From Trachythela sp. YZ-2020 (Eukaryota > Cnidaria > Anthozoa > Malacalcyonacea > Clavulariidae): a stretch of DNA of 64,000 nucleotides. The stretch spans positions 7,705,501 through 7,769,500 of the forward strand of contig JADLSH010000393.1 in assembly GCA_016169945.1 (NCBI GenBank). The letters are read 5' to 3'. How positions within the stretch are numbered: the first letter of the stretch is position 1; each line of letters opens with the position of its first letter. Of this stretch, positions 16,648 to 58,418 are shown one piece after another. The position numbers were made by a program, and so were the translations under genes. The notes beneath the pieces were generated by a model. The model had not been told where the DNA came from and did not search any database. It saw only the letters and a program-made list of their open reading frames with translations.

Positions 16648-16656
16648 CCTGACCCC
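16648..16656. repeat. Left 9 bp target duplication of element A
   Basis: CCTGACCCC; the identical 9 bases occur at 26776-26784 just outside the right terminus. Confidence 0.85.
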
Positions 16657-16710
16657 CAACCTCGTACCCAGGGCCTTTTTTAGGGAGGGAAAAGGCCCTG
16701 GCACCGGCTG
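16657..16710 (+). repeat. Left TIR of element A
   Basis: 54 bp, identical to the reverse complement of 26722-26775. It contains an internal inverted repeat (CAGGGCCTTTT ... AAAAGGCCCTG), so each end can fold by itself. Confidence 0.9.
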
Positions 16711-17970
16711 GCACCTTCTGCAATTTCATTGGTCAACTGCCTCGCACAGTTAATTTATTCAAAACGGTATATCTGCATAATTACGTCGAGTAAAAAGTAT
16801 GAGTGAAATATTTAAGAAATAGTTACAAAAAGTTGCGAAGTTGTGTTTTAAAATACCACATGATGGCAGAAACTCAAGAAACTCCCAAAAAGATCACTGC
16901 TCGGAGTTCAGTTTGTCGCTTTGCGGTAGTTGTTACGAAAGTCACCGTATGTGTCGTATACTGAATAAAACTGAAAATATGTGCGTGAAAATAAAAGAAA
17001 CTTGCAAAATTAATGTAACCGAAGATGATAATCTTTTGAAGATGATGTGCAGAAATTGCAAAAAGTTCATTAATAAGATGAGTGCTTTCGTAGAAAAGTG
17101 CCAAAATATGCAGGTCGGAATGGAGCAGTCCTGTTCAGTGAAGAGATGTGTAGAGCTCTCGCCTTCTGTGATACCGCCATCGAAGCGACTTTCGGTTTCG
17201 GCTGATCAAGAAGCATCATGTTTAGTAAAGAAAATGCTTTTTAACTGCGAAACAACATCAACGCCTTCCGAAACTACGCAACCCTTTATACAGGAATCAT
17301 ATGAACCTATGCTAAACGAGGGCCAAAAGCAGAAAATCATTCGAGCAGCAGAGTCAAAACAAGCAGTGGTTTTGGCGCAAATTATAAAGGAACACTGTCC
17401 ATAACGGATGATGTCAGTTCATCGTGCAAAAATCTTTGCAAGCGCTCTGATGGTTCTGTACTTTTTGGCACGACATACGAGAGTCTGAAAGAATTTGATT
17501 TCGACTTAGTGTGGAATGAAATGGCAACAAATATTCCGTTTCTCGTAGACATTTTCAACGCAGTGTCTGGCAAGAATGACCTCATTGAATGCGCTACACG
17601 GGTGAAATACGGTTTTGCTTATTCCGTACTCATGAATGAATGGTGGCATGAGCTAAGCCTGATGAAACGTGTTAACACAGTTCTGGTGGTCGAAGGAGGT
17701 TGTACTAAACAGGTATGGAAATAGGTTATTTTCAATACACATTTGTGAAGTCAGGCATTTGTGCGGGAATTCATTATTAATATGATTTATATAGCCAAAC
17801 TAATAACGGGAAAATATTCTACTATTTTGATTTTCCCACTGAAACATTGCTATGTACAAGAAATACACATAATTGTAAAAAAATTACTGTCAAAACTTGA
17901 AATTATAATAATAATTTCCCGTCAGAATAACAATTATTAAACGTGTTATCACAACTTTATATATAAACAA

Positions 17971-17984
17971 CAATCAATGTTATA
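17971..17984. repeat. Left 14 bp target duplication of Penelope element 1
   Basis: CAATCAATGTTATA is repeated exactly at 19623-19636. Confidence 0.85.
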
Positions 17985-17999
17985 CCATCTACCACCACC

Positions 18000-19253
18000 T
18001 TGGTACGCTTGGCAGAGTTAGTGCTCACCTTGAACAATTTCTCGTTTGATGGTGAACATTACCAACAAATAAGTGGTGTGGCCATGGGTACCAAAATGGG
18101 ACCCAACTATGCTAATTTGTTTGTTGGTTATGTGGAAAAACAAATCTTCGAACAGTACACTGGTCCCTCACCTGACTTCTATCGCCGGTTCATTGATGAT
18201 TGCTTAGGCACTGCATCATGTTCGCGTGCTGATCTGAATTGCTTCATTAACTTTGTTAATGACTTCCATCCAGCACTTCAGTTCACATGGGAGATCAGTG
18301 AGACCAGTGTATCATTCCTAGACATTCTCATTTCTATCAATTGTAATAGGCTGAGCACATCTGTCTTTTACAAGCCTACTGACTCCTACAGCTATCTTCT
18401 CTTCTCATCCTGTCATCCTAAGCACACTAAAACTGCTATCGCTTACTCTCAATTCTTACGTCTTCGTCGCCTCTGTAGCGAAGACGACGACTTTGATGCC
18501 AAATGTTCAGAAATGAGAAGCTTTTTTGTGAATCGTGGTTATCCTTCCCACCTTTTAGATACTGCCCTTAACAAGGCCTCCCTTATACCCCGTTCAGACA
18601 CCTTAAGAGAACCTTCGGTTGCAATTTCTAATAAAAAAGTACCTTTAGTTTTAACCTTTCATCCCTTCAATTTTAAAGTAAGGGACATCATTTGCCGGAA
18701 TTTTAATCTACTTAAAAATGACCCTGCAACGTCTTCCATTTTCTCCGAGACCCCACTAGTCTCTTTTCGACACAGTAAAAACATCCGGGAAACCCTAGTG
18801 CACAGCTCACTGCGACAGGATTCTGTGTCACCAGCTGGCACTGTTTCCTGTGGTCGTGCTAAGTGCTACACTTGTAAGCATTTAAACCCCACCACCTGTA
18901 TTTCGGCTCCTAAATCTCAGTTTGTCATCAAGCACAGTTTCACGTGCATCTCCTCCAACCTCGTTTACTGCATCTCTTGCAGCAAATGTGGCTTGCTCTA
19001 CATCGGAGAGACTGGAAGACGTTTAGGCGATAGGTTTGCTGAGCACTTGCGTGATGTTAAGAACAATGTGCACAACAAACCTGTTGCTAGGCACTTCAAC
19101 AGTGCCAACCACTCCTTTTCTGATATGAAAATATGCGCCATTCATCCCATTATTGGTGCTAATGATACCCGTCGGAAGCAAGAAAAGCATCTCATTTTTA
19201 AACTTGGCCCCATTCAGCCTGATGGTATCAATGAGCGCCTCTCCTTCATCTAG
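18000..19253 (+). CDS. Penelope reverse transcriptase (partial) with GIY-YIG endonuclease
   Basis: The 417-residue open frame starts inside reverse transcriptase: SGVAMGTKMGPNYANLF is motif B' and YRRFIDDCLG is motif C with the FIDD catalytic pair. After a linker, a Cys-rich region (CGRAKCYTCKHL) leads into the GIY-YIG nuclease: LVYCISCSKCGLLYIGETGRRLGDRF, with the catalytic YIG and Arg, here quoted in parts. RT fingers and motif A are absent, so the protein cannot be active. The 3' portion is intact to the TAG. Such proteins prime reverse transcription at chromosomal nicks made by the nuclease. Confidence 0.9.
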   Translation: MVRLAELVLTLNNFSFDGEHYQQISGVAMGTKMGPNYANLFVGYVEKQIFEQYTGPSPDFYRRFIDDCLGTASCSRADLNCFINFVNDFHPALQFTWEISETSVSFLDILISINCNRLSTSVFYKPTDSYSYLLFSSCHPKHTKTAIAYSQFLRLRRLCSEDDDFDAKCSEMRSFFVNRGYPSHLLDTALNKASLIPRSDTLREPSVAISNKKVPLVLTFHPFNFKVRDIICRNFNLLKNDPATSSIFSETPLVSFRHSKNIRETLVHSSLRQDSVSPAGTVSCGRAKCYTCKHLNPTTCISAPKSQFVIKHSFTCISSNLVYCISCSKCGLLYIGETGRRLGDRFAEHLRDVKNNVHNKPVARHFNSANHSFSDMKICAIHPIIGANDTRRKQEKHLIFKLGPIQPDGINERLSFI

Positions 19254-19538
19254 CTCATTCTTTTCTCTTAAATACTTCTTATATACTTTCCTCTATATCC
19301 CCTCTTCCCTTCCCTTGTACGACATTTATAGCGCTTTGATAAGTGTAACGCCTGTGCGCAGGCCTTCTACCCTATAATCGGGCCGAAGCCTGCACGCAGT
19401 CTATATCTTTACATATTAATTCTATTTTGTTATGATTGTTATGACTACTTTATTTTCATTGGTTAATATTTTGTTCACGTGACAGCTTTTATAGCGTTGC
19501 TATAAAAGCTGATGTAATGTGTTTATCTGTCTACTAAT

Positions 19539-19575
19539 TTCTCCTGACGAAGGACTTTAGCTCGAAACGTCGAGA
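19539..19575 (+). ncRNA. Hammerhead ribozyme-like motif, weak stem II (Penelope 1 tail)
   Basis: CTCCTGACGA, a 13-base stem II region, then GAAACGTCGAG reproduce the hammerhead core (CUGANGA, GAAA, GUC) with stem I pairing CUC/GAG. Stem II pairs poorly and stem III is minimal, so activity is doubtful. Hammerheads are a known feature of Penelope elements. Confidence 0.55.
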
Positions 19576-19636
19576 TTTTGTTTATATCTCAATAGGCACA
19601 CGCGAAACAACCCTCATTTGTTCAATCAATGTTATA

Positions 19637-21139
19637 TGCATGCAACAAAAAAACATGTCGATTTCATATTTTAAGAACTTGTCGATTTCATCAATGTTAT
19701 GGCCAATTTGTACATCAACGTTACATCAATTGCAATGTTACGGCCAAAATCATAAGACAAAACAACTCAAAAAATGAGTAGATTTTAAATTTTGGGGGAT
19801 AATTTCTGTTTTAATTGTCACATTTTGCATGCGTTCATCAGTTCATGAATTAATTTCGAGGCATGCAAAAAGTGACGTTTGAAACAAGTTCATATTAACT
19901 CTTCAACTGTTTAAATTTCAGTATAGATTTAGTTTCCCTATAGTATAAAGACAACAATGAAGTTCAGATATGACATGCGTTATCTAGCCTACTGCTTGTT
20001 TTATACAGTAAACACTAAAAAAGTGAACCTTGGATTTAGAAATCAGGAATTTCGTTTCGTGTGCATACACCTAGAAGCTATCTTTAATTACAAAGTGCAT
20101 AAAATCTTGTGTTTTTCAAAAGGTTCAATTTCTAAAGGATCACCTATTTGGCTATTTCTGATACATTCTAACCTGTATCAAATTTAATGACCAAAAATCA
20201 TACAGTCTGCGCCTGAAATGAGCTTGAAGATGGTCTGAAATACACATACTGATATATATTCATATACATATATATATGTATAGCTTATAGCACAGTCTAA
20301 AATACTAAATTATTAATTATGTAATGTTATACTGTAAATTGAATAAACATCTAAAACAGGTCTTACAAAACCAGACATTTGCATATTTTTGTATTGTACA
20401 AAAGCGTTAAAAATATATACATGTGCGCAAAATAATTTTGCATTTGGAAAGCTATAAAACGAAAGCCTTATTCCATCATTCTGTTCTTACTTTGCTGGAT
20501 ATGTGAGTCACCTACATGTAAAGCACAACTCATTTCAACTCATTGCCATTCGAATATTTGTCTTAGTGCGCGCAGAACTGAGACCCTGTCTGTTCTGACA
20601 ATAATATGCATGCTTATATGTATGCCCTTGCGAATACGACCATGCATATTATTTCATTCGCTTAATGACACTGATAATAACGTAAATTACTTCCCATATT
20701 AAAAAATAATAGGATTCTTCTCTACTTATATTTGAATTTTTAGCCTTTCTATTTCGCGCAAGTGTATTTTTTTCGAAGATCACGCTACAGAAGTTGTACG
20801 AAATATGCAGTCGCTTAATTGTGCGCAATGCGCTTGATGTTTTGAGATATAAATCCCCTATATACACAAATTGGATCTGCTGCGTCCGCTCGCTCGCTAC
20901 CGCAGCAATAAATTAAAGTTATAATAACGTGAGTCATGACACAAATTACATTATGATATGAATACTAAAATTAACTAAACCACCATTCACCACAGACAGC
21001 TTTGAAATGACTGGTACATAAATAAAGTACAATTTTTTATTTGACATGCTTTCCCATTGCGAGTGATGCATTAACTAATTATTACTGTTTGTAAATTGTA
21101 AGTTACTAAAATAATTTATATCCTACTTTCATTTTGCAG
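19637..21139 (+). other. Remainder of DUF6589 intron 1
   Basis: AT-rich intron DNA after the Penelope insertion. No gene or clear repeat is seen; it ends at the TTTTGCAG acceptor before exon 2. Confidence 0.5.
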
Positions 21140-21486
21140 CTTCAAGAAGGCTTAACAAGCTTGGTGTTTGTCTATCCCCTAGCAGAAGAGATGATCTTCT
21201 AAAACTACTTGGAGGGCACTTCATGGACCAAGTGATTGAGAAGGTAAAGAATCACAGAGTCTTTCGTGGCACAGGTGACAATTGGGACCTAAAGGTCCTG
21301 AGAGGGCATATGAGGAAGGAAATCCAAAATTAAGACTTGCATCTATTTGCATCAAATCTCATTGAGAACAGGGTTCCCTTTTTCCACCTACCAAATGATT
21401 CTCCCAAGGATAACATTCTGACCCTTCCACGATCGAAATTCAGTTTAAATGGATTGGAATGGAAGAAGTATGCTGAATCAGCTAAG

Positions 21487-22002
21487 GTATTTTGCACATT
21501 TATCAAATGAATGAAACCTACATTTTTGCTATTATAATATTATATTGACTATTGTTTGCAAGAAGCGGTGTTTTATCAGATTATAGTTAATACCATTCGT
21601 AATCTGATAAAACGCATGCTTCGAGATTATTTAACAGTTTCAACAATGGCTCGTAAATATTCTTTATACAAATTATACGTCTATTGAAGTTAAATTTGGT
21701 TTTGTATAGAGAATACTATAGATTTTGTGTTTTAATAACTAAGCTAAAATGCTTAGTAGTGATTAGTCATTAGTTCTTCATGTCGGGTTAGTGTCGATGC
21801 TTATTAATAGGAATAATAGGCATTGTATACCATATATAGTCTTTATTGCTATATATTTGTATATAGACAAATACTATTTAGTATTGTAAATTTGACGCAG
21901 GACCCCACTGAAAAATATGTTTCTGAGTGATGTGGGTATCCTGGATAAATATAATTATTATAATAATTATTATAATAATTATTTATTATTCTTACTGTAT
22001 AG
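21487..22002 (+). other. DUF6589 intron 2 with hairpin
   Basis: Contains an imperfect inverted repeat at 21563-21621 (TGTTTTATCAGATTA ... TAATCTGATAAAACG) and an ATAATT-type AT-rich run at ~21945-21985. Nothing coding is seen. Confidence 0.45.
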
Positions 22003-23441
22003 GAGGTACTCATAGCAAGAATCCTCATTGTTTTTTCCCCAAATTCAATTTTTTAAAGTCTGTCATTCCAAAGCACATTGACCACATCTATTCCAATCAA
22101 ATGGCTCAAAAGTCGTATCTTGCTAGCTTACCAATCATCAATGCAAATGAAGCAAAATATGAGGATTGTGTAAACATTCTAAGAACATATGAGAGCTGGA
22201 TTGCTTAAGTTTATGTGAAAGCTGGGCTAATTGACGAAATGCCTCAAGCTAATGATCCAGTAATCCCAGAAGGGCCAGCAGCACCTGGTCAAACAAATGC
22301 CCACAGAGAAGATACTCCCAATGACCCTATGAGAGAAATGAAGATACCTTTTGGAGGTGACCAGCTGACCAGAGTGAGATTTGCTGGTGCGAAAGACCTA
22401 CTTGCAGGATCCCATACACCATCTGACCGTTTTGAACATTGCTCGCCATTCAAGCCAGTCATGTTTCATACAAGAGCATCGTTGTTGCAGTATTCCTATT
22501 CATTTCTCCACAAGGCTGAATCGGTTAATCAAGTTGGCACTCTGAAGTTCTTTAGGGAAAAATACAACAGATGCAATGCCACTCCATCAAAAGTAATTGA
22601 CTCATTGGACATCACAACTGCAGCAATGCATTTCTTTGGCATGTCCACTACTAATGATGTTCAAACAGAAAATAAGTTTCCAGGGAATACATCCAATGCA
22701 ACATCTGCAGAGAAGGAAACATATTTCAATAACGTGTTTGGAAAGTTCATTGACGAGTTTGTTTTCCAGAAGAACACCAACTCTGGAGCCAATGAAGATG
22801 AGGATTATGTTCAAAACTATGCATTGTGCCATATTTTTCTCACCATCCTCGTATTACAACTGAAGGATACAGCAGCAGAGGCAGACGGTGAAAGAAATCT
22901 AATTAATCAGAAACTATTGTTAATGGTTTTCAAATCCTTGGGGTCCTATAGCAAATATGCTTTGGAAATGTTTGTCAGCATTGCTCAAATAGAGTGTTTG
23001 TTAACTCCTCGTTTAGCTGAAGAGTTCAAATGGGGATTTTTTGTCAACTGGAGAGGTGGAAAGGGCAAAAATATCGAAAATGACATGGCACAAGAGATAA
23101 GCAACAGACTCAGCAAAAACATTGTTCAGAGAATGGGCCCAAACAAAACATTAAGCTCAATCAGTAAAGTTTGCAAGGCAACAAATGGCATTAAACAGGT
23201 TGTAGAACAATTTGATGGCACTGTTGGCATCCACAAGGTTTCTGCGCAACACACAACACGAGACTCAATGGCAGATGAAAAAGAGATGGTTGCTGATTTA
23301 GTTAAACTCGACCCTTTCAATAAAGTACCTGGTAGATCACACACAAGCTTTCCTGCTATAAAAAGGTGCCCTATGCTGTATTTAGATGTTGTTGAATTCC
23401 ATCAGTGGATCGAAAAACACAAGAAGGAACTAAAGAGATAA

Positions 23442-24046
23442 TGGTACATGCCTGCCAATGTGCTTCTTTATCTTAATTTATCTAATGCAATTCTTATTCA
23501 TGTTTTAAGGGAGACTCTTGCTAATCAATTGATCAATGATCTTTTCTGAAACATTCAATCATGTTTATTTCATTAAATACCATAAAAGAAGGTGAATTAG
23601 CTATTAAATGCCCAAATCGGCGAGGGCTATTTAGTGAAATGCCTGATGGCCAAACGCATTCTGTTAAATAACCTGAATCGAGCTGGACTAAATGTAAATA
23701 GATAGTTCACCTCTTTTTATGGTATTACGTTTTGCAATTCCATCATTCCATGTTTGTGGGTATTCCATTTTTTCTTGCAGGCCGGGCCAATAATTACAGT
23801 CAATTTTTATTCAGTACATTTTATGTTTCTCTAGCAAAACCATGTTATCCTTTTCGAATTTTATCTCTGTTGATGTCACATTATAGTTATAATTCTACCT
23901 GGGTTGATGTCAATGGTGGTAAAATTAGCAAAATAAATACTTTAAATTTAGCTATACATGCAGTAAGTGAGATATAGGTTAATTAGTTTTTAATGGCCCC
24001 TTGAGAACAAATTTAATGCCTGCAAACGTGGCACTGTATTATGTAT
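23442..24046. other. Spacer between convergent genes of element A, with a MITE
   Basis: A ~147 bp MITE lies at 23578-23724. Its ends are TACCATAAAAGAAGGTGAA and TTCACCTCTTTTTATGGTA, with TA at both edges as in Tc1/mariner-type targets. The remainder, between the DUF6589 stop and the RecQ stop, holds nothing recognisable. Confidence 0.65.
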
Positions 24047-26640
24047 CTAACGCAAAGGGGCATATGTTGATGTGAGAGAAAAAAATTTGGAATAGCACTC
24101 TTCATCCCAGATACCACAGATATCTAGCAGATCCGACTCTACTCTGATGTACTCAATTTCGGTCATGATCTTTTTGAGACTGTTTTGACATGGAATTGGA
24201 GATTTCATCAGCATCAAACTTGGACTGTTGCTGTTGTAAACCTGGAGTTGGACTTCCTTTAGAATAAGTTTCTGCAAAATGATAGTATTAGCAGTTGTTA
24301 AAAATCTCACCTTTTCTCTACTTTCCATAGGTTCATTGCAGACAGCAGTTGGATTGGATTCTTCACAAACACAACAGCATCTCTCTTGCTTAACACATGG
24401 AAATCCCAAGTAATTCAGGAGGAGTTGTCGAAGGCAGGTCTCTAGCGATTGGCAGTATTCCTTCATAGATTTATCTATATGTTTCAGGTTGTCTGATATG
24501 TCTGAGTTGTTATAACATAATGTTGCACTTGACAATTGACCTGTACGACCAGCACGGCCAATTTCTTGGACATAGGATTCAATACTACTTGGAGGTGTAA
24601 TGTGTATAACATGCATTATATCTGGTGCATCAACTCCCATTCCAAGAGCAGATGTAGCAAATATAACCCTTATTCGCGAGTTTCGTTTCTTAATTTCTGA
24701 TATGATACTCTTCTTCATTTCATTTGTTTGGGGCGCATGAAACTGTGCAAACAACCTTGCAGCTGGATCATTAGTTTCCCCCCACATATTGTTTCTCCTT
24801 TAACACTCTTTCAAACAACCCATATACATATCCACAGTACTTTAGCTTCATGTATATTACTGTCATGGGGTACTTTTCAAGTTTAACAGACAATTCATTA
24901 GCAATAGGTTGAAGGATATCACTGTAGCTTTCGTATATATGGTGATTACTCATTCGCATCTTCTTTGCAAGAAATATATTCTTTCTATTTGGGTTAGCTG
25001 ATACAACTTTACAGGAGCTGTCCAAATTCATGCTATTTTTTAGGTTGTTCAACAAATGGGGTGGTGCTGTGGCTGTGAGTGCAAGAATTGGAATATTTGG
25101 GAAGAAGGCACGTACAGTGGACAAACTTTTATAATCTTTTCTGAATTCTTTACCCCTTGAAAATAGAAAAATATTTCACTTGATAACTTTATCAATAATC
25201 AATTGTTTCACAGATAACTATTGCACAGTCTGAATCAGGGCAAGAATGTTTTACCTTTGAGATTGGAAGATTGATTCTCAATCAGGACTCGACTCATGTG
25301 GTTAAAATCTGGGTTTGAATAAGGTCAATGTTATATCACTCAATGCAATTGCAATACAATCTCTCTGAGTATGTCATCTATCTTGCCACCCAATGACATT
25401 TGTAATATTAATATGACTTCACAAATTTCATTGCTAATGCCACAAATACATTTTTACATTTGTGAAAATATTTCATTCCACTTTCCAATGCTATCTCAAG
25501 CAACAACCCACAAACAGGCATGCTCGATAAGTACAGTGTATGAGATTTTATAAATATAACGTGGAAAAACAAAACATGAAAACATATAGCTACTAGCTAG
25601 TACACACAAAATCTTGTTAACTTGAATGCAAAGAATACTGTGTTAATCAGTGGAATAAGCAGACTACATGTTTGATTTAATGTCACAAGAAATATTTACC
25701 AGTTCCTGATATTTCCTGCCCAACAGAGAAACATACAAGGAAAACTATCGGTGGGGGCAAATGTTTGGTAAATTACATGCCAAATATGTGTAACCATATC
25801 AGTGTACATCAACTACCACAACTAGCACACTATAACTGCACATACTGTTGACAACAATTACAGTCGTCTCACGTAGTCACATACACTAGCTGCTCACATA
25901 GCAGTTTTTACTGCTCTCTTGTTAACTTTTAAAACCTTTTGCCCGCCAGAAGCATGTATACAAGTTACTTTCCATGGATCAATGTTCAATAAAGGTATAC
26001 AATATATTATAATATTTATACACTATACATGCATGCACGGTGTATCATACACTGATACAGTGTGTAAACATGGCAACATGCAGTATGTATTATGTATTAA
26101 ACACTTAACTCACCACATTTCTACGCAATGCGCTTCGTCCACAATACATGCAACAACATTTCTTTGAAACACTGTACTTTTCATAAGATTTCTTCCTTTA
26201 ACACTCAGTAAGGCTTCCGGATGGGTAAAAACAAGTTGAACATCGCCATTTAACAGCTTGTCGTTTAATAGACATACATCATCGCTTTCTGCTGTTCTTT
26301 CATGTGATCCAAACAAACTTTCCGCTACTTCCCTGCGATGATCAACCAACTGGAGAACTTCTGCCTCGATACCAATACTCTTAGCAACCTTTAACTGATC
26401 CTCGATGATTGCATTTAAAGGACATACTACGATAACGATATTTTTGTCAGCCTTGGTCGGCAAGAAATTTGGAAGAAGTTGAAATAAAAAATAATTCCCA
26501 AAACCAGTTGGTAGAACAGCAACGACATCAAATCCGTTTAGTATGTGCTCAAAACATTTAATTTGGAGTGGTTTTAAGCAAAACGAAGGGAATCTTCCAA
26601 CATTTAACGCCTTATGAAGTCGCTGCAGTATGTGAATTTT
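24047..26640 (-). pseudogene. RecQ-like superfamily 2 helicase of element A
   Basis: Exon 1 (about 26640-26113) carries motif I as LPTGFGNYFLF, motif Ia (VVCPLNAIIEDQ) and the DEAH box (CIVDEAHCVEMW), and ends at a GTGAGT donor. Exon 2 (25155-24047) resumes GKEFRKDYKSL. It contains LALTATAPP (motif III), FATSALGMGVDAPDI (motif V), YVQEIGRAGRTGQ (motif VI) and a RecQ zinc-binding region (CVKQERCCCVCE). The Walker A Lys is Asn here, so ATP hydrolysis should fail. A one-base frameshift falls in a run of C near 24775-24785, and no clear start codon is visible. It is convergent with the DUF6589 gene and inside the same TIRs, so it is probably an element-borne helicase. Confidence 0.8.
25156..26112 (-). 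other. RecQ intron of element A
   Basis: About 0.96 kb bounded by GTGAGT (donor) and AAG (acceptor). No embedded gene or definable repeat is seen. Confidence 0.5.
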
Positions 26641-26721
26641 TTTCTAAACACGATGAAAATATTTAGCATATGTAATTATCACGCTAATTTATTCAAAACC
26701 ACGATTCGTGGTTTTAAAAAT

Positions 26722-26775
26722 CAGCCGGTGCCAGGGCCTTTTCCCTCCCTAAAAAAGGCCCTGGGTACGAGGTTG
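26722..26775 (-). repeat. Right TIR of element A
   Basis: 54 bp, reverse complement of the left TIR with no mismatch by eye; followed by CCTGACCCC (26776-26784). Confidence 0.9.
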
Positions 26776-26784
26776 CCTGACCCC

Positions 26785-28180: not shown

Positions 28181-31100
28181 ATACGACATCAGACCAGCCA
28201 AATCCTGCAGGTGTGTTCTATAAGCGAAGAAGAGCAAGTTATGTCAATGTACTTCTTGACCATTTTGAGGAAAGAAAGGGTTTTGAATTAAAACAAGATA
28301 TAGTTCTTGACATTTTAAAACTGAATAGCCTCCGAAAGAGACAAGCAACAAATGCAATCAAGCAAGCGTTTCCTAATTCCATGGTTGAAAGAAAAGGATC
28401 AGGAAAAGACAGAATAACATTTTACAAACATGTTGCTCCAAAATCACTATTGTTGCCAAGCAAGCCAACCCTTCCATCTGAATCTACAAGTGCATGTACA
28501 TCTTCGACTGCAGACACATCTTCATTTTTGCAACTAAACGAAAGTGCTGAAATAGCCAACCTAAAAGACCTGATCAAAGCTACATCATGTGAACTTGATT
28601 CTGTAAGCAAGACTTGATGATCATTTGTGTAAAGAAGAAATAGAGAAGGATGTTGTAAAAGTTTTTCTTCACATGCAGCACCAACTTCAAGAGAGAGTAC
28701 AAGAACTACAGAACAATTTGACAGCATTGCTTCAGAAAGAAGTTAACAGACTTACTGAAAGTCAGTCACAGTGCGAGACTCTGTGCTTATGAAACGATGC
28801 AGTTGAATGAGGAAATGTCTGTGTTTATTGAATATTTGAACAAAAACATGGAATCAAAGACGTTGTCTAGAGATGATTTTAGTGGCATGTTTTCATCACT
28901 AACTGATGATCTTAGGCAAAACTGCCCTCTGTTGTTTAGTATATTAAATACTATTCTTCTGCAGAAGAAAGATCACTGACAAGTAACTGAAAGGCGCGTC
29001 AAGAGTGTGGTGCATTCTCTTGCTATTCTGGACAGCTTGAAGAGCCAGAAAATTCCAAATGACTTCAAGCTGATGTTCACTTGTTTGTGCATCTCATTTG
29101 GAGCAGGGCTCCGTTTTATCAGCATGTTGAATCATCTTGGTTTGACAGTGAGTTGGGAAAAAGCCATGAAATTCTTTGACAGTCAAAGAATGAAGCAGGA
29201 AAAGGATCTAGCCAACTTATCTCCAGCTGATATTCCAGTGATTTTGATGATGGACAACATTAACATATACAGAGGAAAACGGAAGCATTTACGCCTTTTT
29301 AAGTCACTTGGTCCAACCATGTGGAATTTACTGCCCAAGCTGTGCTCATTCCAAATGTGGATGGTATGGAGGAAATCCTTGAAGATAAGAAATCATGTCT
29401 TTCCCCGCAAGGTTCAGCCACCGAAATGAACCCAGAGGATTTGTTCCTTGAGAGTGATCAGGAGAAATCTTCCTTATTTTCTAAAGTTGTTGACCAGTAT
29501 TTATTGGACGTCTTAGATGTTAGTCTCAACAAAGTTACAATATCTGCAAAGCAACTGAAAGAAATGACTGAACAGCAAGTCAATTCTCATCTGAAGACTG
29601 CTGACTTTCAACCAAGCACTGTGAAGTACAACATAAATGTGCCAACGGATGATGAACTGTTGACACATGCTGTTCCTAATGCAAAGAGCAATGTTAATAT
29701 TTTACCTCTGTCATTAGAAGATAACAGTACTGTCCTTGGCACAATGAGCATCTTGGACAATTTATCCAAAGTGTTCAGTCTGTCACATGAAAAGCGACAA
29801 GCAGAGTACTTACCATTTGACTGTGTAAGTGGTAACTTTGATGCAGTTTCAGCACGATCTCATTTTGAACTCCTTCTCAGTCAACAAAGTCATGTCAAGT
29901 ACATGAAAAGTATTCAGATTAGAATGCGGTCGAATGACAAAGCATTAGATGACTTAGCCGAAAGTGATAATCGTGATAACGATGACAGTGATGAAGAAAA
30001 TTCTGAGGACTTGCATACAGATAGTTCAATCTCAGGAGCAATCACACTTGAACACGAGAAGAGACGCTTTGAAGTTGAAGACAAGCCTTTTTGGGAAGCT
30101 TACAATTCACTGAGTCAAGAATTGTTAAATGTGACATTGACCAACAGCGAAGAGTCCTACATGAATTCAGTGGAAAACCTGAAAAACAGGAAAGATTCAA
30201 CGATCACAGATCATTTGAAGAGAAGCATGTTACACATAGCTGTTGAAAAAAACCAAGAGAACTTTGCAAGATATCTAGTAGACCTTGGACTGAATGTAAA
30301 TGCGAGAGAGGGATGTGGTATGACACTGTTGTGTCTTGCTGTTCTTTGCAAGAACAGTGTTCTCTGCGGATTTTTGGTTGAGTCTGGTGCCATGTATTCT
30401 GGACCCTTGTTTACAAGTATTCCATCTCCACTATATATGGCTGAAGAACTGCAGCTTAGCCAAATACAACAAATTTTCAGTCAGGACAAGGCAGTATCGG
30501 ATGAAGAAGACTTGTTAATTCAAGCTATAGATCAAACATTCTGCAAGAACCCAGCCAATCAGGCGTCTGCTCAACAATATGTGATGAATTGTAACAGAAC
30601 ATGTCCAGGGTTTGTAACACCAGTAGTTGGTGATGTTGGTACATGTAAGACGAACAATGCAGCTATGGCAGATTGGCTTCATATCAGGTTTCACTACCTA
30701 TGGTATGAAATACTAAAGCGCAAGAGAATGACATCTGAGGTGTTCAAAAATAGGAAGTTTCAGGACAGCAATCTGACTAAAGTTAGAGAGGCTATTAATG
30801 ATGCATGTATATTGCTGATAGCCATATGTTTCCATTGAGAGAAGAGATCTTGCAGACAGACAACATCAACCTCCTGCTTCTGACCAGATTCCAAGAGTGG
30901 CTATCACTATCATCCAAGAATGATATTGCTTTCCAGCATAGGGCAACAGCAATTCTGTTTTATGGCCCTCTCCAGAGGTTGTATGATGCTGCAATATCGT
31001 ATGGTGACGGAGTTGCATGTGAAGCTGTGTACCACGCTCTAGCCCCAGTATATGCCCAACTTGGATTCCGAAACTACTTCACTGAGGTGTTCCGCCACAT

Positions 31101-31201
31101 TGTAAACTTCACAACTAAGTGGCTGATTGCAACAAGAATACTGCTCCAAAAAAACTGTTCTGTTAATCTTCTAGGTATGCAAACATTTCTATACTTACAT
31201 T

Positions 31202-31226
31202 TCTCTCTCTCTCTCTCTCTCTCTCT
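31202..31226. repeat. CT microsatellite
   Basis: A run of TC dinucleotides (about 12 units) at the start of the locus B intron. Confidence 0.9.
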
Positions 31227-31296
31227 AATCCAAAAATGGGCTTGTTGTACTGTAGAAGATATAAGAGTGCTCAATACCAAACATATAGCAGAGAAA

Positions 31297-31628
31297 ATAT
31301 AATTGTTTATGCTTTAAAATTTATGATCGCTACTCCGAGTTTCACGCCTCGTTCAAGACGATCTTCGTGGGATTTTGTTCACTGAATCCAGTTTATTGTT
31401 TGTTGGCGTCAACAAATCAACGGTTCGCTGACGCGGTATCTTGCTTGGTTGCGTGCGCTTAAAATTGCCCGCACTAAATCGTTCCATACCGCGTCAGCGA
31501 ACCGTTGATGTGTTGACGCAAACAAACAATAAACTGGATTCAGTGAACAAAATCGCCTGAAGATCGTCTCGAATGAGGCGTGAAACTCGGAGTTGCGCTC
31601 GTAAATTTTAAAATATAAACAATTATAT
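31297..31628. mobile_element. Palindromic (foldback) MITE in locus B intron
   Basis: Two ~150 bp arms face each other: the left carries GAGTTTCACGCCTCGTTC and GCGTCAACAAATCAACGG, and the right carries their reverse complements with a few mismatches. The loop is only a few tens of bases. No coding sequence. Confidence 0.8.
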
Positions 31629-31671
31629 ATATATAAATACGAAGTCACTCGCATCTAGACTGCATTACAAG

Positions 31672-31715
31672 CTGCACTGACGAGCCGTTGAACGGCAAAA
31701 CATGCATGTCTGCAG
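31672..31715 (+). ncRNA. Hammerhead ribozyme copy with mutated core
   Basis: Same layout as the copy at 33189, but the conserved GAAA after stem II reads AAAA (GGCAAAAC), which should abolish cleavage. Confidence 0.75.
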
Positions 31716-31914
31716 ATTTGACTATATATATATATATATCAGTGCAGCTTGTAACGCAGTCTAGATGCGAGTGACTTCGTATTTATACACCATACTCTTG
31801 CCCTCACCAAGCGCATCCAGACATGCGTGAAGTGTCTTGGGGCCATATATATATATATGAATATAAGTGTCAAGTTCAAAATCATATAGACTCAATACCA
31901 ACAACAGTATGGCA

Positions 31915-32801
31915 ACAACATTGGTCTATACAGAGACGACGGGCTAGCCGCTTTCAATGAATCACCCAGAGAAATAGAGAATATCAAGAAGGATATTTGC
32001 AAAATTTTCAACGACCACAGCTTAAAGCTCACCATCGAAGCGAACAAGAAGTGCGTCGACTACCTAGATATCACCCTAGATCTGAGAACTGGAAAGTTCA
32101 AACCATACAGTAAGCCAGGCAATATCCCACAATACGTCAATCACCGCAGCAACCATCCGCCAGCAATTATTCGCACAATACCAGATGCAATCAACAGGAG
32201 GTTATCCAACATCTGAATGTTTTCCGAAGGGTCACCCGCTCCGTAAAAAATATTCAATAGGAACACTCTGAAGTTGAGCTATAGTTGCATGCCTAACATG
32301 AAAAGCATCATCTCTTCGCACAACAAATCTGTAATTAAGAATGAAACTGAATCCAATCCAAACCCAACTACCACATGTAATTGTCGCCAAAAGAATACTT
32401 GCCCGCTCGACCAAAAATGCCAAACGAAAGGAATAGTCTATCAAGCCACAGTCACCAGACAAGATAACATGAAATCCGAAACCTACGTAGGACTGACTGA
32501 AAGCACTTTTAAAACCCGATATCTAAACCACTCTAGCTCATTTAGAAACCTAAAATATAAATCTGCCACCGAGCTTAGCAAATATGTCTGGACATTGAAA
32601 GAATCAGATGTCCACTATGCCATCAATTGGAAAATATTAAAACAATGCAAACCATACTCGAATATAACGAAGAGATGTAATCTATGCCTGCATGAAAAAT
32701 ACATCATTATTTGTCACCCGAAACTAAGCTCACTTAACTGCAGAAATGAACTTGTCTCCACTTGCAGACACAGGAAGAAACATTTACTAAGCAATCACTA
32801 A
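31915..32801 (+). pseudogene. Penelope 2 reverse transcriptase fragment and GIY-YIG nuclease
   Basis: Reading begins within RT motif C ([13 protein letters not shown]) and continues through [17 protein letters not shown] to a TGA at ~32214. In a following frame come the Cys cluster CNCRQKNTCPLDQKC and a GIY-YIG domain (VYQATVTR ... ETYVGLTESTFKTRYLNHSS), ending at 32801. All RT motifs before the YRDD are missing, so this is a 5'-truncated and frameshifted copy. The YRDDG form and the Cys cluster point to a different Penelope lineage from element 1, whose motif is FIDD. Confidence 0.8.
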
Positions 32802-33188
32802 CAAACAATTAACAGACACTTATCACAGTTAGCTATGTGTACGTATTTGTAATATGAGTCATCCGTTTTATAGATTAATCCTAATTCAAATTTCTTAGCG
32901 TTAAAAAATCAGTTGCAATATTCACCTGATGAGTGTGGTATGCTCGGCTTGCCATACGAAACAGATTTGTAGTGAAGTAAAGTTTTAATGAAGTAGTTCG
33001 GGTTTGTACTTTATTTTGTTTTACTATAAAAGCTCACTTCCCTTGTGGTCGTTTGAGCACTCTGGCCCCAAGACACTTCACGCATGTCTGGATGCGCATG
33101 TGTCTGAGTATTGTACCACATGCGCTTGGTGAGGGCAAGAGTATGGTGTATAAATACGAAGTCACTCGCATCTAGACTGCGTTACAAG

Positions 33189-33232
33189 CTGCACTGACGA
33201 GCCGTTGAACGGCGAAACATGCATGTCTGCAG
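33189..33232 (+). ncRNA. Type I hammerhead ribozyme, intact core
   Basis: Stem I CUGCA/UGCAG; core CUGACGA; stem II GCCGU-UGA-ACGGC (5 bp); GAAA; stem III ACA-UGCA-UGU (3 bp); cleavage expected after GUC at 33227. All universally conserved core bases are present. Location in a Penelope terminal repeat matches known biology. Confidence 0.88.
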
Positions 33233-33470
33233 ATTTGACTATATATGCTCCTTCACTTGTGTTGTTGAGCACTCTGTGAGGTTAATTGGTGGCTAATAAG
33301 CTATAATGCAAAAGCTCACTTCCCTTGTGGTCGTTTGAGCACTCTGGCCCCAAGACACTTCACGCATGTCTGGATGCGCATGTGTCTGAGTATTGTACCA
33401 CATGCGCTTGGTGAGGGCAAGAGTATGGTGTATAAATACGAAGTCACTCGCATCTAGACTGCGTTACAAG

Positions 33471-33514
33471 CTGCACTGACGAGCCGTTGAACGGCGAAAC
33501 ATGCATGTCTGCAG
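33471..33514 (+). ncRNA. Type I hammerhead ribozyme, second intact copy
   Basis: Identical to the copy at 33189, 282 bp downstream; cleavage expected after 33509. Confidence 0.88.
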
Positions 33515-34373
33515 ATTTGACTATATATATATATATATATACTTACATTTCTATATATATACATATATATCGACAAATAATGAATGTTTTCACTTTAATG
33601 AATCCATCTTTTGCCTCATGAAAATATTCTTACCATTGCCTTGATAAACATTCGTTATTTCTATATACTGTCTAATGCCAGATTGTTTTACTCTATTTAA
33701 GCCAGTCGTTCTCACACGGGCCCTTATGGGTTAATGGTTCAACACTTTTAAGAGTCAATAGACATCAGGACCCATCAACTGGGTGAACACAATCTTCTGG
33801 CATAAGGCAGAATAAATTGCCTGCATTTTGTAGCCTGTATGTTTTTGGGCAGTGCTAAAAATCCACCTTAAGAAAAGGTATCATGTTGATTGTTATATAT
33901 ATATATATATATATATATACATCTTTTTAGGAAAGAAAGGCAATGGAATTGAGCTTGATGGTTATGTTGAATCCGAAGTTGTGCAGCCATTAAAGAATTA
34001 CGTTTCTGGCCATTCTACCGTCAGCATGTGCGAGCGGTTGATGTCAAATCTGGATATGATGAAGTGTATAAGACGGGAATACATGGGCAAAGACGGCTTT
34101 GACGTACATCATACTTCCAGGCATTCTGTCCAGTCACCACTCCCAGACCAACTGAAAGGTGCATGGTTTTGTCTCCAAAAACAATTCTTTGAAGACAAGA
34201 AACGCCAAGAAGTGGAATGCTACCCCCTTGATGGAAAGGGTTGTGCTTCTGGGAAAATCCCGAAAAACCTGCTTGATGTGGTCCAGAAAGGGAAGAACAA
34301 GATCAAGGACAACTTTACAGCTAAACTGTATGAGAGCTTCCCAGATTTAAGGTACAAAATTTTAATGGAATAG

Positions 34374-35203: not shown

Positions 35204-36319
35204 TTAGATGCTGCACAACTTTGGTAGAGATGAACTGTTTTGAAAACTGTTTTTACCTTTACCATACTGTGAAGTGGTATGAAAACCATTAGCAATAATC
35301 TCCTTTGCTTTTGATCCCATATACGTCATGACCAGTTGACTAATTTTCACTTTGGATATGATAGCAATCAAATTCTTTAAACATTCCACCACATTCTTGG
35401 CTTCTTGTGTGTAATCCTTGATTTCATGAATGACTCCTTTTTGGCAAGACTTACACGGTTCCCCAGCCTTTTCAGCAAAATATTCTGCAATGATTTGCTG
35501 CCTGCAAACGGAATGTTCCATGCAGAATTGTGACATTGAGTTTAACAGGTGAATCTTGTTTTCTTTCTCTTGCTCTGAAGCCATTCTGGAAATGTTTCGA
35601 AGGTGAAATGTTCGGTCCTCAAACCGGAACAGCAATATACAAGAACAGCTTGCACCATCACGGCCACCCCTTCCTGATTCTTGGACATAATCTTCTAGTG
35701 AAGAAGGTATCGAGAGATGTATCACAAACCGCACATCCTTTTTGTCAATCCCCATACCAAAAGCATTTGTGCAGCACATTACTTTGACTTTACCACTTAA
35801 CCAAAGGGATGCATTTCTCATTCTGTCACCACTTGCCATTCCAGCATGGTAGAATGTGGCTATCACACCATGTTGCTTCAGAACAAATGCCATTTCAACT
35901 GTGTCTGCCTGGGTTGCACAGTATATTATGCCACATGTTTCTGGATATTCATCTTCGATGACTTTACATATCTGCTGCTTGGTTTTTGTCTATTTCTTTT
36001 CAACAACTGAGAAAACTAAATTGTCTCTCCTACATGGCATTCTCACAATCTGTGGATTGTTCATCTGCAGGGTTGAAGTAATGGAATCCAGAGTTTGTTT
36101 TGTTGCTGTGCCAGTAAGTGCAGCAACAGGAACATTATATTTCCTTAATATACCTAATTGTTGGTAAGCCGGTCTAAATTCCCTGCCCCATGTGTTGATA
36201 CAATGTGCTTCATCAATAATGAAAAAGCTCAAACGTTTTTCACTACTAAGCTTATCTAGGCAACTTTGAAATGTCTCGGTTACGACAGCTTCAGGGCTTG
36301 CAAACACAAATTGGTACTA
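35204..36319 (-). pseudogene. RecQ-like helicase of locus B, N-terminally incomplete
   Basis: After a TTTATTTAG acceptor near 36320 the frame reads YQFVFASPEAVV, the DEAH box (FFIIDEAHCINTWG), AALTGTATKQT (motif III), CTNAFGMGIDKKDV (motif V) and YVQESGRGGRDG (motif VI). The RecQ zinc region follows (FCMEHSVCRQQII, CKSCQKG). A TAG near 35990 interrupts it. Motif I (Walker A) would lie in an exon further right. It is not found; instead the ~770 bp inverted repeat of element C starts right at the acceptor. It is convergent with the DUF6589-like gene, as in element A, but is closer to BLM/RecQ-type sequences. Confidence 0.75.
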
Positions 36320-50147: not shown

Positions 50148-50290
50148 CAGCCTCGTACCCAGGCGCTTTTAAGGAAAAGAAAAAAAAATCGCGTTCAGCT
50201 AATTTATAGAGATCAGTGGCTGAGATTAGCGAGCGCACGGGGGTGCTTGGGGAGGACGCGACGAGAGGGGGAAGCGCCTGGCAGAAAATG
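50148..50290 (+). repeat. Left TIR of element D
   Basis: About 143 bp; pairs with 58550-58688 with several mismatches and short indels. Confidence 0.85.
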
Positions 50291-50398
50291 CAGATAAGTG
50301 AAGAATTTTGACCGAAATGTGAAGAATCCTTTCCATCGCTTGATTTGAGGTGCCTTTTCGTCAGTTTTTCTCCCTGGTGTGTTATCATTGATATCTGT

Positions 50399-51367
50399 AT
50401 GGATGAAATAGACCATTCTTTTCCAGAAGCTCTAACTACAGGTATTTTTATGTATATATAATATATTTAATATTTTTGCAAAGCCTCTAGTGGTTAAAAT
50501 TGTGTAAATGTATGAAATGGTTGCACAGAATTGACGATTTTTCTTATTTGTGGTCACAAAACTAATTGGACCTTTGATATGCTATATCCTTGCGAGATTG
50601 TCGTTTTTCATTCGGGCTATTTTGCTATTTTCTTTAAGCAATTTGCATACTTTGTTGTCGTTTTTATATACAATAACAATTGAATGCTTGATCACAGTCT
50701 ACGATTTTGGTAAATTTGTATCGCTAAAACAAGTTTCTTTTATATGCAGAATTTAGTTCAGACGATGAATTTAATACTTCCTTTCGACAACTGATGTTCA
50801 AGGTAATTTTTACTATTATTTTATAATAATATAGTCATAGCCTCATAGGCATTGTGTATTGTTATGTATTCATTTAAAAATCTGTCAGTGCTTCTTGATA
50901 TTGACTGAAGTAGCATGGTTACCAAGAGCATCCGAAAATAACCAGTATATTCATGAGGTAGGGTCACATAACCTACCAACAGGATATATTGCTACCAACT
51001 TGCCAAAGTGGCATGGACACTGTTTAAAATAGTTGTCGGGTTGATATGTATGTATATTAATCATATGACGTCTTTGTTGTTTTGACATACAGTCACATTC
51101 GTAGTGAATATTAAGGTAGGATGTCTTTACATGGCTTATGTAGAGAAAAACAATGACCTTTTGCAAAGGTAACCCTATCTCTAGCATCACCCTAACACAC
51201 AATAGACTATAGGGTTACTGGTTACCAGGGTAACCTTGTGGCTAGGATCACCCTATTGTCATGTAAACAGCCCATGGGTCAAACAGTGTGCTTTGTGTTC
51301 TTTTTAGCTTACAATCTGTCAAGTTCCCAGTGTGATGAGAGAAGGCATAAGTTGTCAACTGAGCTAG
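50399..51367 (+). CDS. Candidate three-exon small gene in element D
   Basis: The ATG at 50399 opens MDEIDHSFPEALTT to a donor at 50442. An exon at 50750-50802 (EFSSDDEFNTSFRQLMFK) is flanked by GCAG and GTAATT and joins in phase. An exon from 51308 after TTTTTAG reads LTICQVPSVMREGIS to TAG 51365-51367. The product would be ~51 residues, with an acidic N-terminus. I do not recognise it; the phase agreement and splice sites are the only support. Confidence 0.25.
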
Positions 51368-52451
51368 AACATGTTGCTGAGTATTGATGAAGAATCAAAT
51401 ATTTATGTGAAATAGTCATTGTGATGGATTTGCTTGATTTGACATCCAACAAGAAGAACATTCTCACTCGAACAGTTAAAGCATGTTTTCCAGGTCCAAC
51501 AAAACAGAAATAAATGACTGAATGTGAACAAATGTGTTGTATTTTGTAAAATTATTCTGTCTGCATGCCATAGTATAAATTTAATGTTTGTAGCATAATG
51601 CAATTAGGGTGTTTTATTTTGCTTTAAATCCTTTAATATATAGTATGAGATTTTGAGGTGATTAATACAATAACAAACCTGAGAAAACTTAAAATGGATA
51701 TACATTAATAGCCCAGCAAATGACTTTCAATGTCTTGTTTGAATGTTATTTGCTGAACTTTTTTGGAGCCTGATAAAAATATCTTATATACCAGGGGCCA
51801 GTTGTTCAAAAGCCGGTTAACGCTAACCCTGGGTTAAATTTTAATCTGCTGTTCTGGTTTGTATACTTCTACATGTTTGTTTATTTCAAAACTTTATAAA
51901 CAAAAACTTCTATCGCCCAGTACAAGGTTGATAGAAAAAAGTATTCATATTAATATAACCGATGTCTGGAAACTTGTATGAAAGTTACCACTAACCCAGG
52001 GTTAAGTTAACCGGCTTTTGAACAACCGGCCCCAGGGACCCTGGGGAAAGGGTATAAACATGGCCCTGTCAGTCATTGAAATCCGAATGTGAAAGACAAA
52101 GCACAGAGTGCCCCCCATATAGGAGTAGCCCTAAAATGTTGTAAACATAGCATGAATTCATTACAATTTGAGTATGAGAAATGATCGATGGTCTATACGT
52201 ACACTGCTGTCAAATCACAGTGTGTATATACAATTTTAATAGGTACTAATCTTTCTGTGAAAACAAATGGCAGAAAGCACATGCATGGAATAATTCAGTG
52301 AGCATAAAACAGAAATTCTGTTTTTAGAAAACCAAATTAATGATATTCAGATGGGAGTTGAGATTACATTAGCCAGGACACTGGCAGGAAAGTTTAACTT
52401 AGAACAATATTAAATTAAATTGCAAATTATTAATGTTTTATTATTTAATTA
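50803..52451. other. Interior of element D left of BEL/Pao, with a MITE
   Basis: An intact 240 bp MITE occupies 51794-52033 (GGGGCCAGTTGTTCAAAAGC ... CTTTTGAACAACCGGCCCC), related to the remnant at 39150-39328. Apart from the candidate last exon at 51308-51367, no other gene is seen. Confidence 0.6.
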
Positions 52452-52456
52452 ATACG

Positions 52457-52675
52457 TGTTATGAAGATCGATTTTAGCTCAACACACACACGTCTATATT
52501 GTATGGAAAACATTTACAATAACAACTAAAACCCTACAATACAAATTACAAAATGCCTAATTTACCCAGAAATGTCAACGCTAAAAATAGAGTTACAAAA
52601 ATAAACGCGAATATAAAGTTAATCTAATTAATCGTATAGTGTTCGAATTCTGTAAAATATTAACCGTTCATGACA
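52457..52675 (-). repeat. 3' LTR of BEL/Pao, with adjacent purine tract
   Basis: 219 bp with canonical TG...CA ends. A short purine tract (TTGGGGAG in element sense) abuts it at 52676-52683. Confidence 0.9.
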
Positions 52676-52763
52676 CTCCCCAATGTTTAGTCACTGAATG
52701 AATGAAGTGATAAACACCTACAAACTCAACTACGTAAAAATGTTACAAAATGTTACTTTCTCT

Positions 52764-55196: not shown

Positions 55197-55201
55197 AATG
55201 G

Positions 55202-56659
55202 TTAAAATGGTGCAAGAAATCCCAGCGGGTCAAATATCTTAGCAGTGAGAATCAGCAATGACCGTTTTGTAGTTGGAAGTGAAGTCGCTTCTTCCTTCCA
55301 CTTGTCGAAATTGAAGAACATTTCATCGGCTTTCGTGTTCCAATTAGTCCCAAGCACTTTGACACTATCGTTTGATGGATCAGTTGTATTATGTCCTGTA
55401 GTTGATTTAGCGTACGACTCGTCCTCTTCCGAAGTTTGTGGCATTGGATCTTTGCTACGGTATCCCTCGAATTCGTGTTCGCTCGCTTCGATTTGTTCAA
55501 GTAGTTCTTGCGAATTGGAGTTCCACTTCCGAAGATTGAAGCCGCCCTCGGACATGATTTGTTTCGACCTCTTGTAAATATGGAACGATTCACCAACATT
55601 TTCTTCGCCAGACACAAGATCATCGACATAAAATGAATTTCGTAAAACTTCCACTACCTTTGAATCGGATTGAGAATATTTTCCTACGTGATGGGAAATG
55701 GCGAACCCAAGAATGGACGGTGAAGGTCGAAGACCAAAGACTAATCGTTTGAACCGAAACATCGTCAATTTGGGATGGCACTCATTCGGATCGTCAAACC
55801 ACAAAAAACGTAGTGCATCTCGGTCAGCCTTTTTGATGCCAACCATCAAAAAAGCCTTTTCGATATCAGCTGTGATAGCAATTGTATTCCAACGGAATTT
55901 GACCAAAATATCAAAAACATGCGGTGTATAATTCGGCCCAGTTTCGAGACAATCGTTCAATGATTTTTCTTCCTTTGAACCCTTCGCTGATCCGTCATAA
56001 ACGACACGAACTTTCGTGGTATCCTTGTCCTTTCGAATAACCGGATGATGAGGCAGATAATTCACTCGGTTATCGCCTTCACTAGATTCACCTTGATTTG
56101 GTACCCTTTCGATAATGCCTGTTTCGAGTTGTTCGCGAATTATCTTATCGTACTCGTTTAAAAGAACTGGGTCTGTCCGTAACTTTCGATGAAGATACTG
56201 GAGTCGATTGTAGCATGGATTGTAGCCGTCAGAATGGGGAAAACAATTGCCCTTCCAAGGTAAACCTACCTCGTACATTCGACCGTCAAACGCGAAATCT
56301 TCGATAAAACCCTCGTGAACAGCGCGATCATCAATGCTGTTAATTTCCGAAATTCCGATAGCCTCTGTTTCCCAAAATTGCTTCAAGATATCTACTACTT
56401 GATCGTTTCGTGGCGTTTCCTCGTGAATAAAATCTTCAGTACGTAAAGAAATTACTAAATTCGCGGACGTATTCCCTTGTTGCTCCCCTCTGGACTTGGT
56501 TAACTCAGATTTACCGGAAAGCATCCACCCAAATTTGCTGTTTACAGCTACGGGCCCAGAATCCCCACGAATCGTTTCCCCGGTGACAAAGTTCCAATAG
56601 TAATCAGAACCTACGAGGATATCAATCGAGTTGTGATGCTCGTTTCGGGGTTTCGTCAA
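55202..56659 (-). CDS. BEL/Pao pol, protease C-terminal and reverse transcriptase part
   Basis: The frame starts in the DUF1758-type protease region (DILVGSDYYWNFVTGE, FGWMLSGK). It continues into reverse transcriptase: RVVYDGSAKGSKEEKSLNDC, TADIEKAFLMVGI (motif A), FGLRPSPSILGF and SFYVDDLVSG (YVDD). The end (LTAKIFDPLGFLAPF) leads into the A17-type region. One-base shifts separate it from the gag/protease frame near 56640 and from the next frame at ~55200. Confidence 0.9.
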   Translation of the reverse strand: MTKPRNEHHNSIDILVGSDYYWNFVTGETIRGDSGPVAVNSKFGWMLSGKSELTKSRGEQQGNTSANLVISLRTEDFIHEETPRNDQVVDILKQFWETEAIGISEINSIDDRAVHEGFIEDFAFDGRMYEVGLPWKGNCFPHSDGYNPCYNRLQYLHRKLRTDPVLLNEYDKIIREQLETGIIERVPNQGESSEGDNRVNYLPHHPVIRKDKDTTKVRVVYDGSAKGSKEEKSLNDCLETGPNYTPHVFDILVKFRWNTIAITADIEKAFLMVGIKKADRDALRFLWFDDPNECHPKLTMFRFKRLVFGLRPSPSILGFAISHHVGKYSQSDSKVVEVLRNSFYVDDLVSGEENVGESFHIYKRSKQIMSEGGFNLRKWNSNSQELLEQIEASEHEFEGYRSKDPMPQTSEEDESYAKSTTGHNTTDPSNDSVKVLGTNWNTKADEMFFNFDKWKEEATSLPTTKRSLLILTAKIFDPLGFLAPF

Positions 56660-58203: not shown

Positions 58204-58209
58204 CGTTTA

Positions 58210-58418
58210 ATCGATTTTAGCTCAACACACACACGTCTATATTGTATGGAAAACATTTACAATAACAACTAAAACCCTACAATACAAATTACAAAATGCC
58301 TAATTTACCCAGAAATGTCAACGCTAAAAATAGAGTTACAAAAATAAACGCGAATATAAAGTTAATCTAATTAATCGTATAGTGTTCGAATTCTGTAAAA
58401 TATTAACCGTTCATGACA
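58210..58418 (-). repeat. 5' LTR of BEL/Pao, truncated at its inner end
   Basis: It matches the 3' LTR for 209 bases, then at ATCGAT switches directly into gag. The last 10 bases (CTTCATAACA in element sense) and the primer site are absent. Confidence 0.88.

What the first reader, a model, noticed from the sequence alone, without database searches (positions are those of the whole stretch)
16657..26775. A transposon pairing a DUF6589 protein with a RecQ helicase
Seen: perfect 54 bp TIRs (CAACCTCGTACCCAGG...), a 9 bp duplication CCTGACCCC on both sides, and between them a multi-exon DUF6589 gene convergent with a RecQ-like gene. Known: DUF6589 is an uncharacterised, multi-copy eukaryotic family, and RecQ helicases normally belong to the host. 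Inferred: DUF6589 is the transposase (or part of it) of a large DNA transposon class that carries its own helicase. I know of no described superfamily with this gene pair and these ends.
Basis: partly seen in the sequence, partly recalled or inferred. Interest (0 to 1): 0.88.

Follow-up and report, generated by a model that had tools for sequence, protein, structure and literature searches.

The report
Jumping gene with its own helicase
A decayed copy of a cut-and-paste jumping gene that carries both a DUF6589 protein, which looks like its transposase, and a DNA-unwinding RecQ helicase; the kind is very probably already described as Academ/AcademH, but it gives a job to a large protein family that had none.

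Summary
16657-26775 has perfect 54-bp inverted ends, the 9-bp duplication CCTGACCCC, and a DUF6589 gene convergent with a RecQ-like gene. This copy is broken: frame shifts, stops, a deletion, a 1.6-kb Penelope-like insertion. In the window's own genome the ends occur at 11 places; 10 hold both genes or parts of them, convergent; 7 have exact 9-bp duplications, two (one site, duplicated) 10-bp. Genome-wide, 28 of 102 listed DUF6589 loci have a convergent RecQ 0.9-2.0 kb away (0.28 expected within 10 kb, any orientation). A family with diverged proteins (C73, C233) shares the ends and 9-bp duplications. By VIA-align the predicted structures match P-element, Hermes and RAG1 best, with conserved D/D/E in place; Foldseek alone is not significant. 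So DUF6589 is very probably the DDE transposase, with a RecQ helper. The claim of no described counterpart fails: papers name 'RecQ Helicase in Academ' and 9- or 10-bp AcademH duplications. Most likely a new AcademH family; Academ proteins could not be compared. What seems new is the identity of DUF6589.

The parts
16648..16656 (.). target site duplication, left copy, CCTGACCCC
16657..16710 (+). left terminal inverted repeat, 54 nt, with an inner palindrome CCAGGGCCTTTT..AAAAGGCCCTGG
16860..17697 (+). first exon of the DUF6589 gene: zf-AD (ZAD) zinc finger and N-terminal part; broken by two frame shifts
   Evidence: zf-AD above cut-off in relatives P0035, P0198; exon ends inferred
17985..19622 (+). 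nested Penelope-like insertion (reverse transcriptase remnant E 0.034 and GIY-YIG E 2e-5), 14-bp duplication CAATCAATGTTATA; absent from 4 of 4 compared copies
21142..21487 (+). middle exon of the DUF6589 gene, holds the first conserved Asp (TGDNWD); one in-frame stop; exon ends inferred
22029..23438 (+). last exon of the DUF6589 gene, PF20231; second conserved Asp (GDQLT) and conserved Glu (NIE.D); one in-frame stop and a deletion of about 40 nt
24050..24829 (-). RecQ-like gene, last part: Helicase_C and RecQ-type zinc cysteines
24783..25166 (-). RecQ-like gene, middle part; frame shift at the join with the last part
26113..26643 (-). RecQ-like gene, first part: DEAD domain with DEAHC box, Walker A altered in this copy
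26722..26775 (-). right terminal inverted repeat, 54 nt
26776..26784 (.). target site duplication, right copy, CCTGACCCC
50148..58688 (.). second element with related ends (CAGCCTCGTACCCAGG, TIR 117 nt 97%), 9-bp duplication ATACAGACG at 50139-50147 and 58689-58697; no DUF6589 or RecQ found inside with the composite queries or the A3 profile; filled by a BEL/Pao-like element
28980..34370 (+). second, divergent DUF6589-like gene with ankyrin repeats (joined exons: PF20231 30.1 bits, cut-off 27); exon ends inferred
35207..36316 (-). RecQ-like helicase (DEAD, Helicase_C, RecQ_Zn_bind, RQC) convergent with that second DUF6589-like gene

Best explanation
A degenerate copy of a large cut-and-paste DNA transposon, most likely a cnidarian family of the AcademH lineage. 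The DUF6589 protein is its transposase: a ZAD zinc finger (probably dimerisation and DNA contact) followed by an RNase H-like DDE core (D362, D550 and E801 in the relative P0035) split by a large helical insertion as in Hermes, P element and RAG1. It would recognise the ends CAACCTCGT-CCCAGG and the palindrome behind them, cut there, and join the element to staggered cuts 9 (sometimes 10) bp apart. The RecQ protein, convergent and sharing the element, is a helper that would unwind the hairpin-prone ends or process intermediates and gaps. Shown: ends, duplications, gene pairing, multiple copies, RecQ identity. Predicted: the DDE fold. Inferred: catalysis, end binding and the step at which RecQ acts.
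Confidence: 0.83

Rival explanations
1. A DNA transposon superfamily of its own, which works like Academ but is not Academ: DUF6589 transposase and RecQ were joined independently.
For: No Academ sequence was on hand to show homology; the name DUF6589 occurs in no held paper and PF20231 in none on the subject.
Against: Pairing with RecQ plus 9/10-bp duplications is just what is reported for Academ/AcademH.
Confidence: 0.13
2. The RecQ is the element's engine or a passenger, and DUF6589 is an accessory (for example a DNA-binding regulator), the true transposase being elsewhere.
For: No activity has been shown; Foldseek alone does not call the fold.
Against: Eight ORFs of the window copy scanned against Pfam gave no third gene except the nested Penelope-like one (other copies were not scanned for further genes); VIA-align puts known DDE transposases first for DUF6589 models, with acids conserved in place; RecQ has no known end-cutting activity (recalled).
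Confidence: 0.05
3. Chance nesting of a host DUF6589 gene and a host RecQ gene between unrelated inverted repeats.
For: The window is full of nested elements.
Against: 10 of 11 places with these ends hold both genes or parts of them; 28 convergent pairs, 30 in any orientation, against 0.28 expected within 10 kb; second family with the same layout, ends and duplications.
Confidence: 0.01

Closest known systems
Academ superfamily, lineage AcademH (Kojima 2020, Mob DNA 11:15; the paper is not held, only its title in reference lists and passages of papers citing it were seen)
   Same: DNA transposon with a helicase; 9- or 10-bp duplications (passage in PMC10045372); RecQ reported in Academ (passage in PMC3627910); found in animals and fungi (title).
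   Different: Whether its transposase is DUF6589, whether the helicase is a separate convergent gene, and its end sequence could not be compared.
KolobokH and other RecQ-bearing Kolobok
   Same: Carries a RecQ helicase with a DDD/E transposase; one red-alga family, Kolobok-1_CCri, has RecQ on the complementary strand, as here (passage in PMC9587614).
   Different: KolobokH is found only from fungi, with RecQ downstream of the transposase domain; TTAA duplications (recalled), here 9 bp.
hAT (Hermes) and P element transposases
   Same: Predicted fold of DUF6589 aligns best with them by VIA-align: RNase H core with a large helical insertion.
   Different: No sequence match (one search finds only a ZAD domain); hAT usually makes 8-bp duplications (passage in PMC12730594), P element too (recalled); no RecQ (recalled).
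MuDR/MULE
   Same: 9-bp duplications (recalled).
   Different: No MULE domain in the Pfam scans of the DUF6589 exons or of two relatives.

Membership tests
Academ / AcademH | 9- or 10-bp target site duplication | tested here: met
   of 11 places 7 have 9 bp, 2 (one site in inverted duplicate) 10 bp, 2 no clean pair of flanks; 2 of 2 in family C73/C233; not shown in 2 of 2 of family C189/C212
Academ / AcademH | element carries a RecQ / superfamily 2 helicase | tested here: met
Academ / AcademH | terminal inverted repeats | tested here: met
   not mirrored in C189/C212
Academ / AcademH | DDD/E transposase with RNase H fold (Academ is listed as DDD/E in PMC9587614) | tested here: met
   by structure prediction only; Foldseek alone not significant
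Academ / AcademH | transposase sequence groups with Academ reference proteins | not testable with these tools
   Repbase and Kojima 2020 are not on hand
KolobokH | RecQ helicase | tested here: met
KolobokH | TTAA target site duplication (recalled) | tested here: not met
   9 or 10 bp of differing sequence
hAT or P element | 8-bp target site duplication (hAT; P: recalled) | tested here: not met
   9 or 10 bp
hAT or P element | RNase H core with helical insertion | tested here: met
MuDR/MULE | MULE transposase domain | tested here: not met
   no MULE family at E <= 1
RecQ helicases | RecQ core motifs (Walker A, DEAH box, RecQ zinc cysteines) | tested here: met
   for relatives; RecQ_Zn_bind itself is below its cut-off in the window gene and in P0076, P0079; Walker A altered in the window copy

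The most novel reading that the evidence does not exclude
DUF6589/RecQ elements with ends CAACCTCGTNCCCAGG form a DDE transposon superfamily separate from Academ, with a ZAD-fused transposase and a convergent RecQ gene whose unwinding of palindromic ends is needed for transposition.
Probability: 0.13. Interest if true: 0.75.

Novelty: new member of a known kind. Interest (0 to 1): 0.45.

Why it matters
Pfam's DUF6589 ('family of unknown function') is carried at 102 or more places of this one genome (lower bound); the data make it a DDE transposase and tie it to a RecQ partner, so gene annotations built on it, and 'RecQ-like' genes beside it, are likely transposon parts. It also gives a testable system for why a transposon should bring a RecQ helicase.

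Tried and rejected
Chance nesting: rejected. Relatives in viral contigs (47 pattern matches, none confirmed) and genome contigs (109, none confirmed), so no context from there. Looking for the ends of the second DUF6589/RecQ pair in the window: none found; an end-like motif near 27820 found no partner. Placing the second RecQ in a tree: branch too long to place. Comparing by eye the contig lengths of DUF6589 and RecQ protein hits (the RecQ list shows 120 of 909): no useful signal. Target preference in nine duplications: none seen by eye. Papers: DUF6589 in none, PF20231/DUF 6589/IPR046496 only in an unrelated physics paper; other searches for Academ, AcademH, RecQ transposons; AcademH/AcademX in 7 listed papers, of which I read passages of four; Kojima 2020 itself is not held.

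Full report
What is there. The window (C82:7705501-7769500 of an unnamed 578-Mb genome) holds at 16657-26775 an element with 54-nt perfect inverted ends and the 9-bp duplication CCTGACCCC. Inside are a plus-strand DUF6589 gene (PF20231 E 1e-26) with a weak zf-AD match at its start, and a minus-strand gene with DEAD and Helicase_C domains. The nearest named relatives of the helicase are from an octocoral and a stony coral (Dendronephthya 83%, Montipora 55%, 120 of 909 shown), and every DUF6589 relative listed with an organism name is cnidarian, so the host is inferred to be a cnidarian. A profile of 14 helicase relatives matches RecQ helicases in its first 38 rows, three of them named only 'ATP-dependent DNA helicase'.

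The copy is dead. The DUF6589 gene has two frame shifts, two in-frame stops and a deletion of about 40 nt; the RecQ-like gene has a frame shift and an altered Walker A motif. A Penelope-like element of 1638 bp with a 14-bp duplication sits in an intron-like stretch. Exon limits are inferred.

The ends are a family. In the window's own genome a 33-base end pattern with up to 3 mismatches matches 20 times and its reversed control 0 times: nine facing pairs and two singles, 11 places. I fetched the ten outside the window. Exact 9-bp duplications flank 7 (window, L010, L011, L013, L014, L018/L019, and L021, whose right end was found with more mismatches), exact 10-bp ones flank 2 (L009 and L015-L017, the same site in inverted duplicate); L012 has a changed right end and no clean duplication; L020 has no left end within 30 kb. 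Both genes or parts of them, convergent each time, are at 10 of 11; L020 shows DUF6589 only. L009, L014 and L021 hold only parts of the genes; four copies (L010-L013) are 8.6-8.7 kb. Aligned parts of the nine other places compared are 91.6-97.3% identical to the window copy. Six of seven other copies checked keep GFGKS in the Walker A motif.

The pair is not a feature of one family. PF20231 matches 104 stretches of the genome (690 candidates, 102 scored, so a lower bound; 0 of 14 control genomes). The RecQ protein P0076 matches 91 stretches (1593 candidates, 89 scored). After merging pieces, 30 of 102 DUF6589 loci have a RecQ within 10 kb against 0.28 expected if RecQ loci were scattered uniformly; 28 of the 30 are convergent with a gap of 870-2022 bp, and the other 2 are 7.2 and 8.6 kb away and not convergent. 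22 of the 28 lie outside the TIR pairs. Copies of one family are not independent, transposons may cluster, and 72 loci have no listed RecQ. Of 4 DUF6589 places fetched from the top of the list, 3 had a convergent RecQ: L024, already among the 28 and with the window family's right end, and L026 and L027, whose RecQ is missing from the RecQ list; L025 had none. In the window itself a second, distant DUF6589-like gene with ankyrin repeats (30.1 bits, cut-off 27) converges on a second RecQ with an RQC domain.

A second family shares the ends. C73 and C233 copies, whose DUF6589 proteins are diverged (41-62% identity per exon to octocoral relatives), have ends CAACCTCGTTCCCAGG alike at 16 of 16 bases, and duplications GTATGGTGG and CTCACTCAT, with the genes convergent. 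An element without these genes at 50148-58688 of the window (CAGCCTCGTACCCAGG, duplication ATACAGACG) and one nested in L009 (CAATCTCGTACCCCGAG, duplication GGAGGGAAA) fit the same pattern. Against: in the C189/C212 family the left end starts GTCAACCTCCGTCGCAGGG but the right end does not mirror it and no duplication was found in either copy; L026 and L027 showed no ends in the 10 kb read; the C107 copy has no left end in 15 kb.

How it probably works. DUF6589 protein dimers bind the ends, cut, and join at 9- or 10-bp staggers. RecQ, coded opposite so that both genes end in the middle, is a helper. Each end carries a palindrome (CCAGGGCCTTTT..AAAAGGCCCTGG here, CCAGGCGCTT..AAGCGCCTGG in the second element), which a helicase might be needed to open; that step is inference.

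Known or new. PMC3627910 (passages) lists 'RecQ Helicase in Academ' among transposon helper proteins; PMC10045372 (passage) says that AcademH makes 9- or 10-bp duplications and relates this to its helicase; PMC10799480 (passages) treats DEAD and Helicase_C as domains of AcademH, KolobokH or Helitron. The original AcademH paper is not held. The 9/10-bp mix and the RecQ match so closely that AcademH membership is my reading, but no Academ protein was compared. The link between Pfam DUF6589 and a DDE transposase is in no held paper that uses the name; papers outside the held library were not searched.

Noticed in passing
window 36325-47018: Inverted repeats of about 0.75 kb (several blocks, up to 399 nt at 99%) enclose PIF1-like helicase ORFs (37029-38358) and an ORF with TNP-like_RNaseH_C (43804-43349): another transposon with a helicase of a different type; its duplication was not clear.
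   Followed up: partly
window 28980-36316: Second, diverged DUF6589-like gene with ankyrin repeats converging on a RecQ with an RQC domain; no ends found.
   Followed up: partly
window 52467-58418: BEL/Pao-like retroelement (long pol-type ORFs, named by eye, not scanned) with identical 209-bp direct repeats at 52467-52675 and 58210-58418, nested in the second CAGCCTCG element.
   Followed up: partly
L009 137-2996: A 2.9-kb element with ends CAATCTCGTACCCCGAG and 9-bp duplication GGAGGGAAA inserted inside the inverted repeat of another copy.
   Followed up: partly
G000 C11:368825-376915 and C11:1751426-1774462: The same insertion with the same flanks in inverted orientation on one contig: an inverted duplication or an assembly effect.
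   Followed up: no
P0035 residues 32-100 and other full-length DUF6589 proteins: A ZAD (zf-AD) domain, which I recall mainly from insect zinc-finger proteins, heads these cnidarian transposases.
   Followed up: partly
window 32247-32798: ORF with a GIY-YIG-like stretch (YVGLTESTFKTRYLNH), probably a second Penelope-like remnant inside the second DUF6589-like gene; not scanned.
   Followed up: no
L028-L031 (C189, C212): DUF6589/RecQ family whose left end begins GTCAACCTCCGTCGCAGGG with a palindrome, while both copies stop at the same inner point on the right without it and without a duplication.
   Followed up: partly
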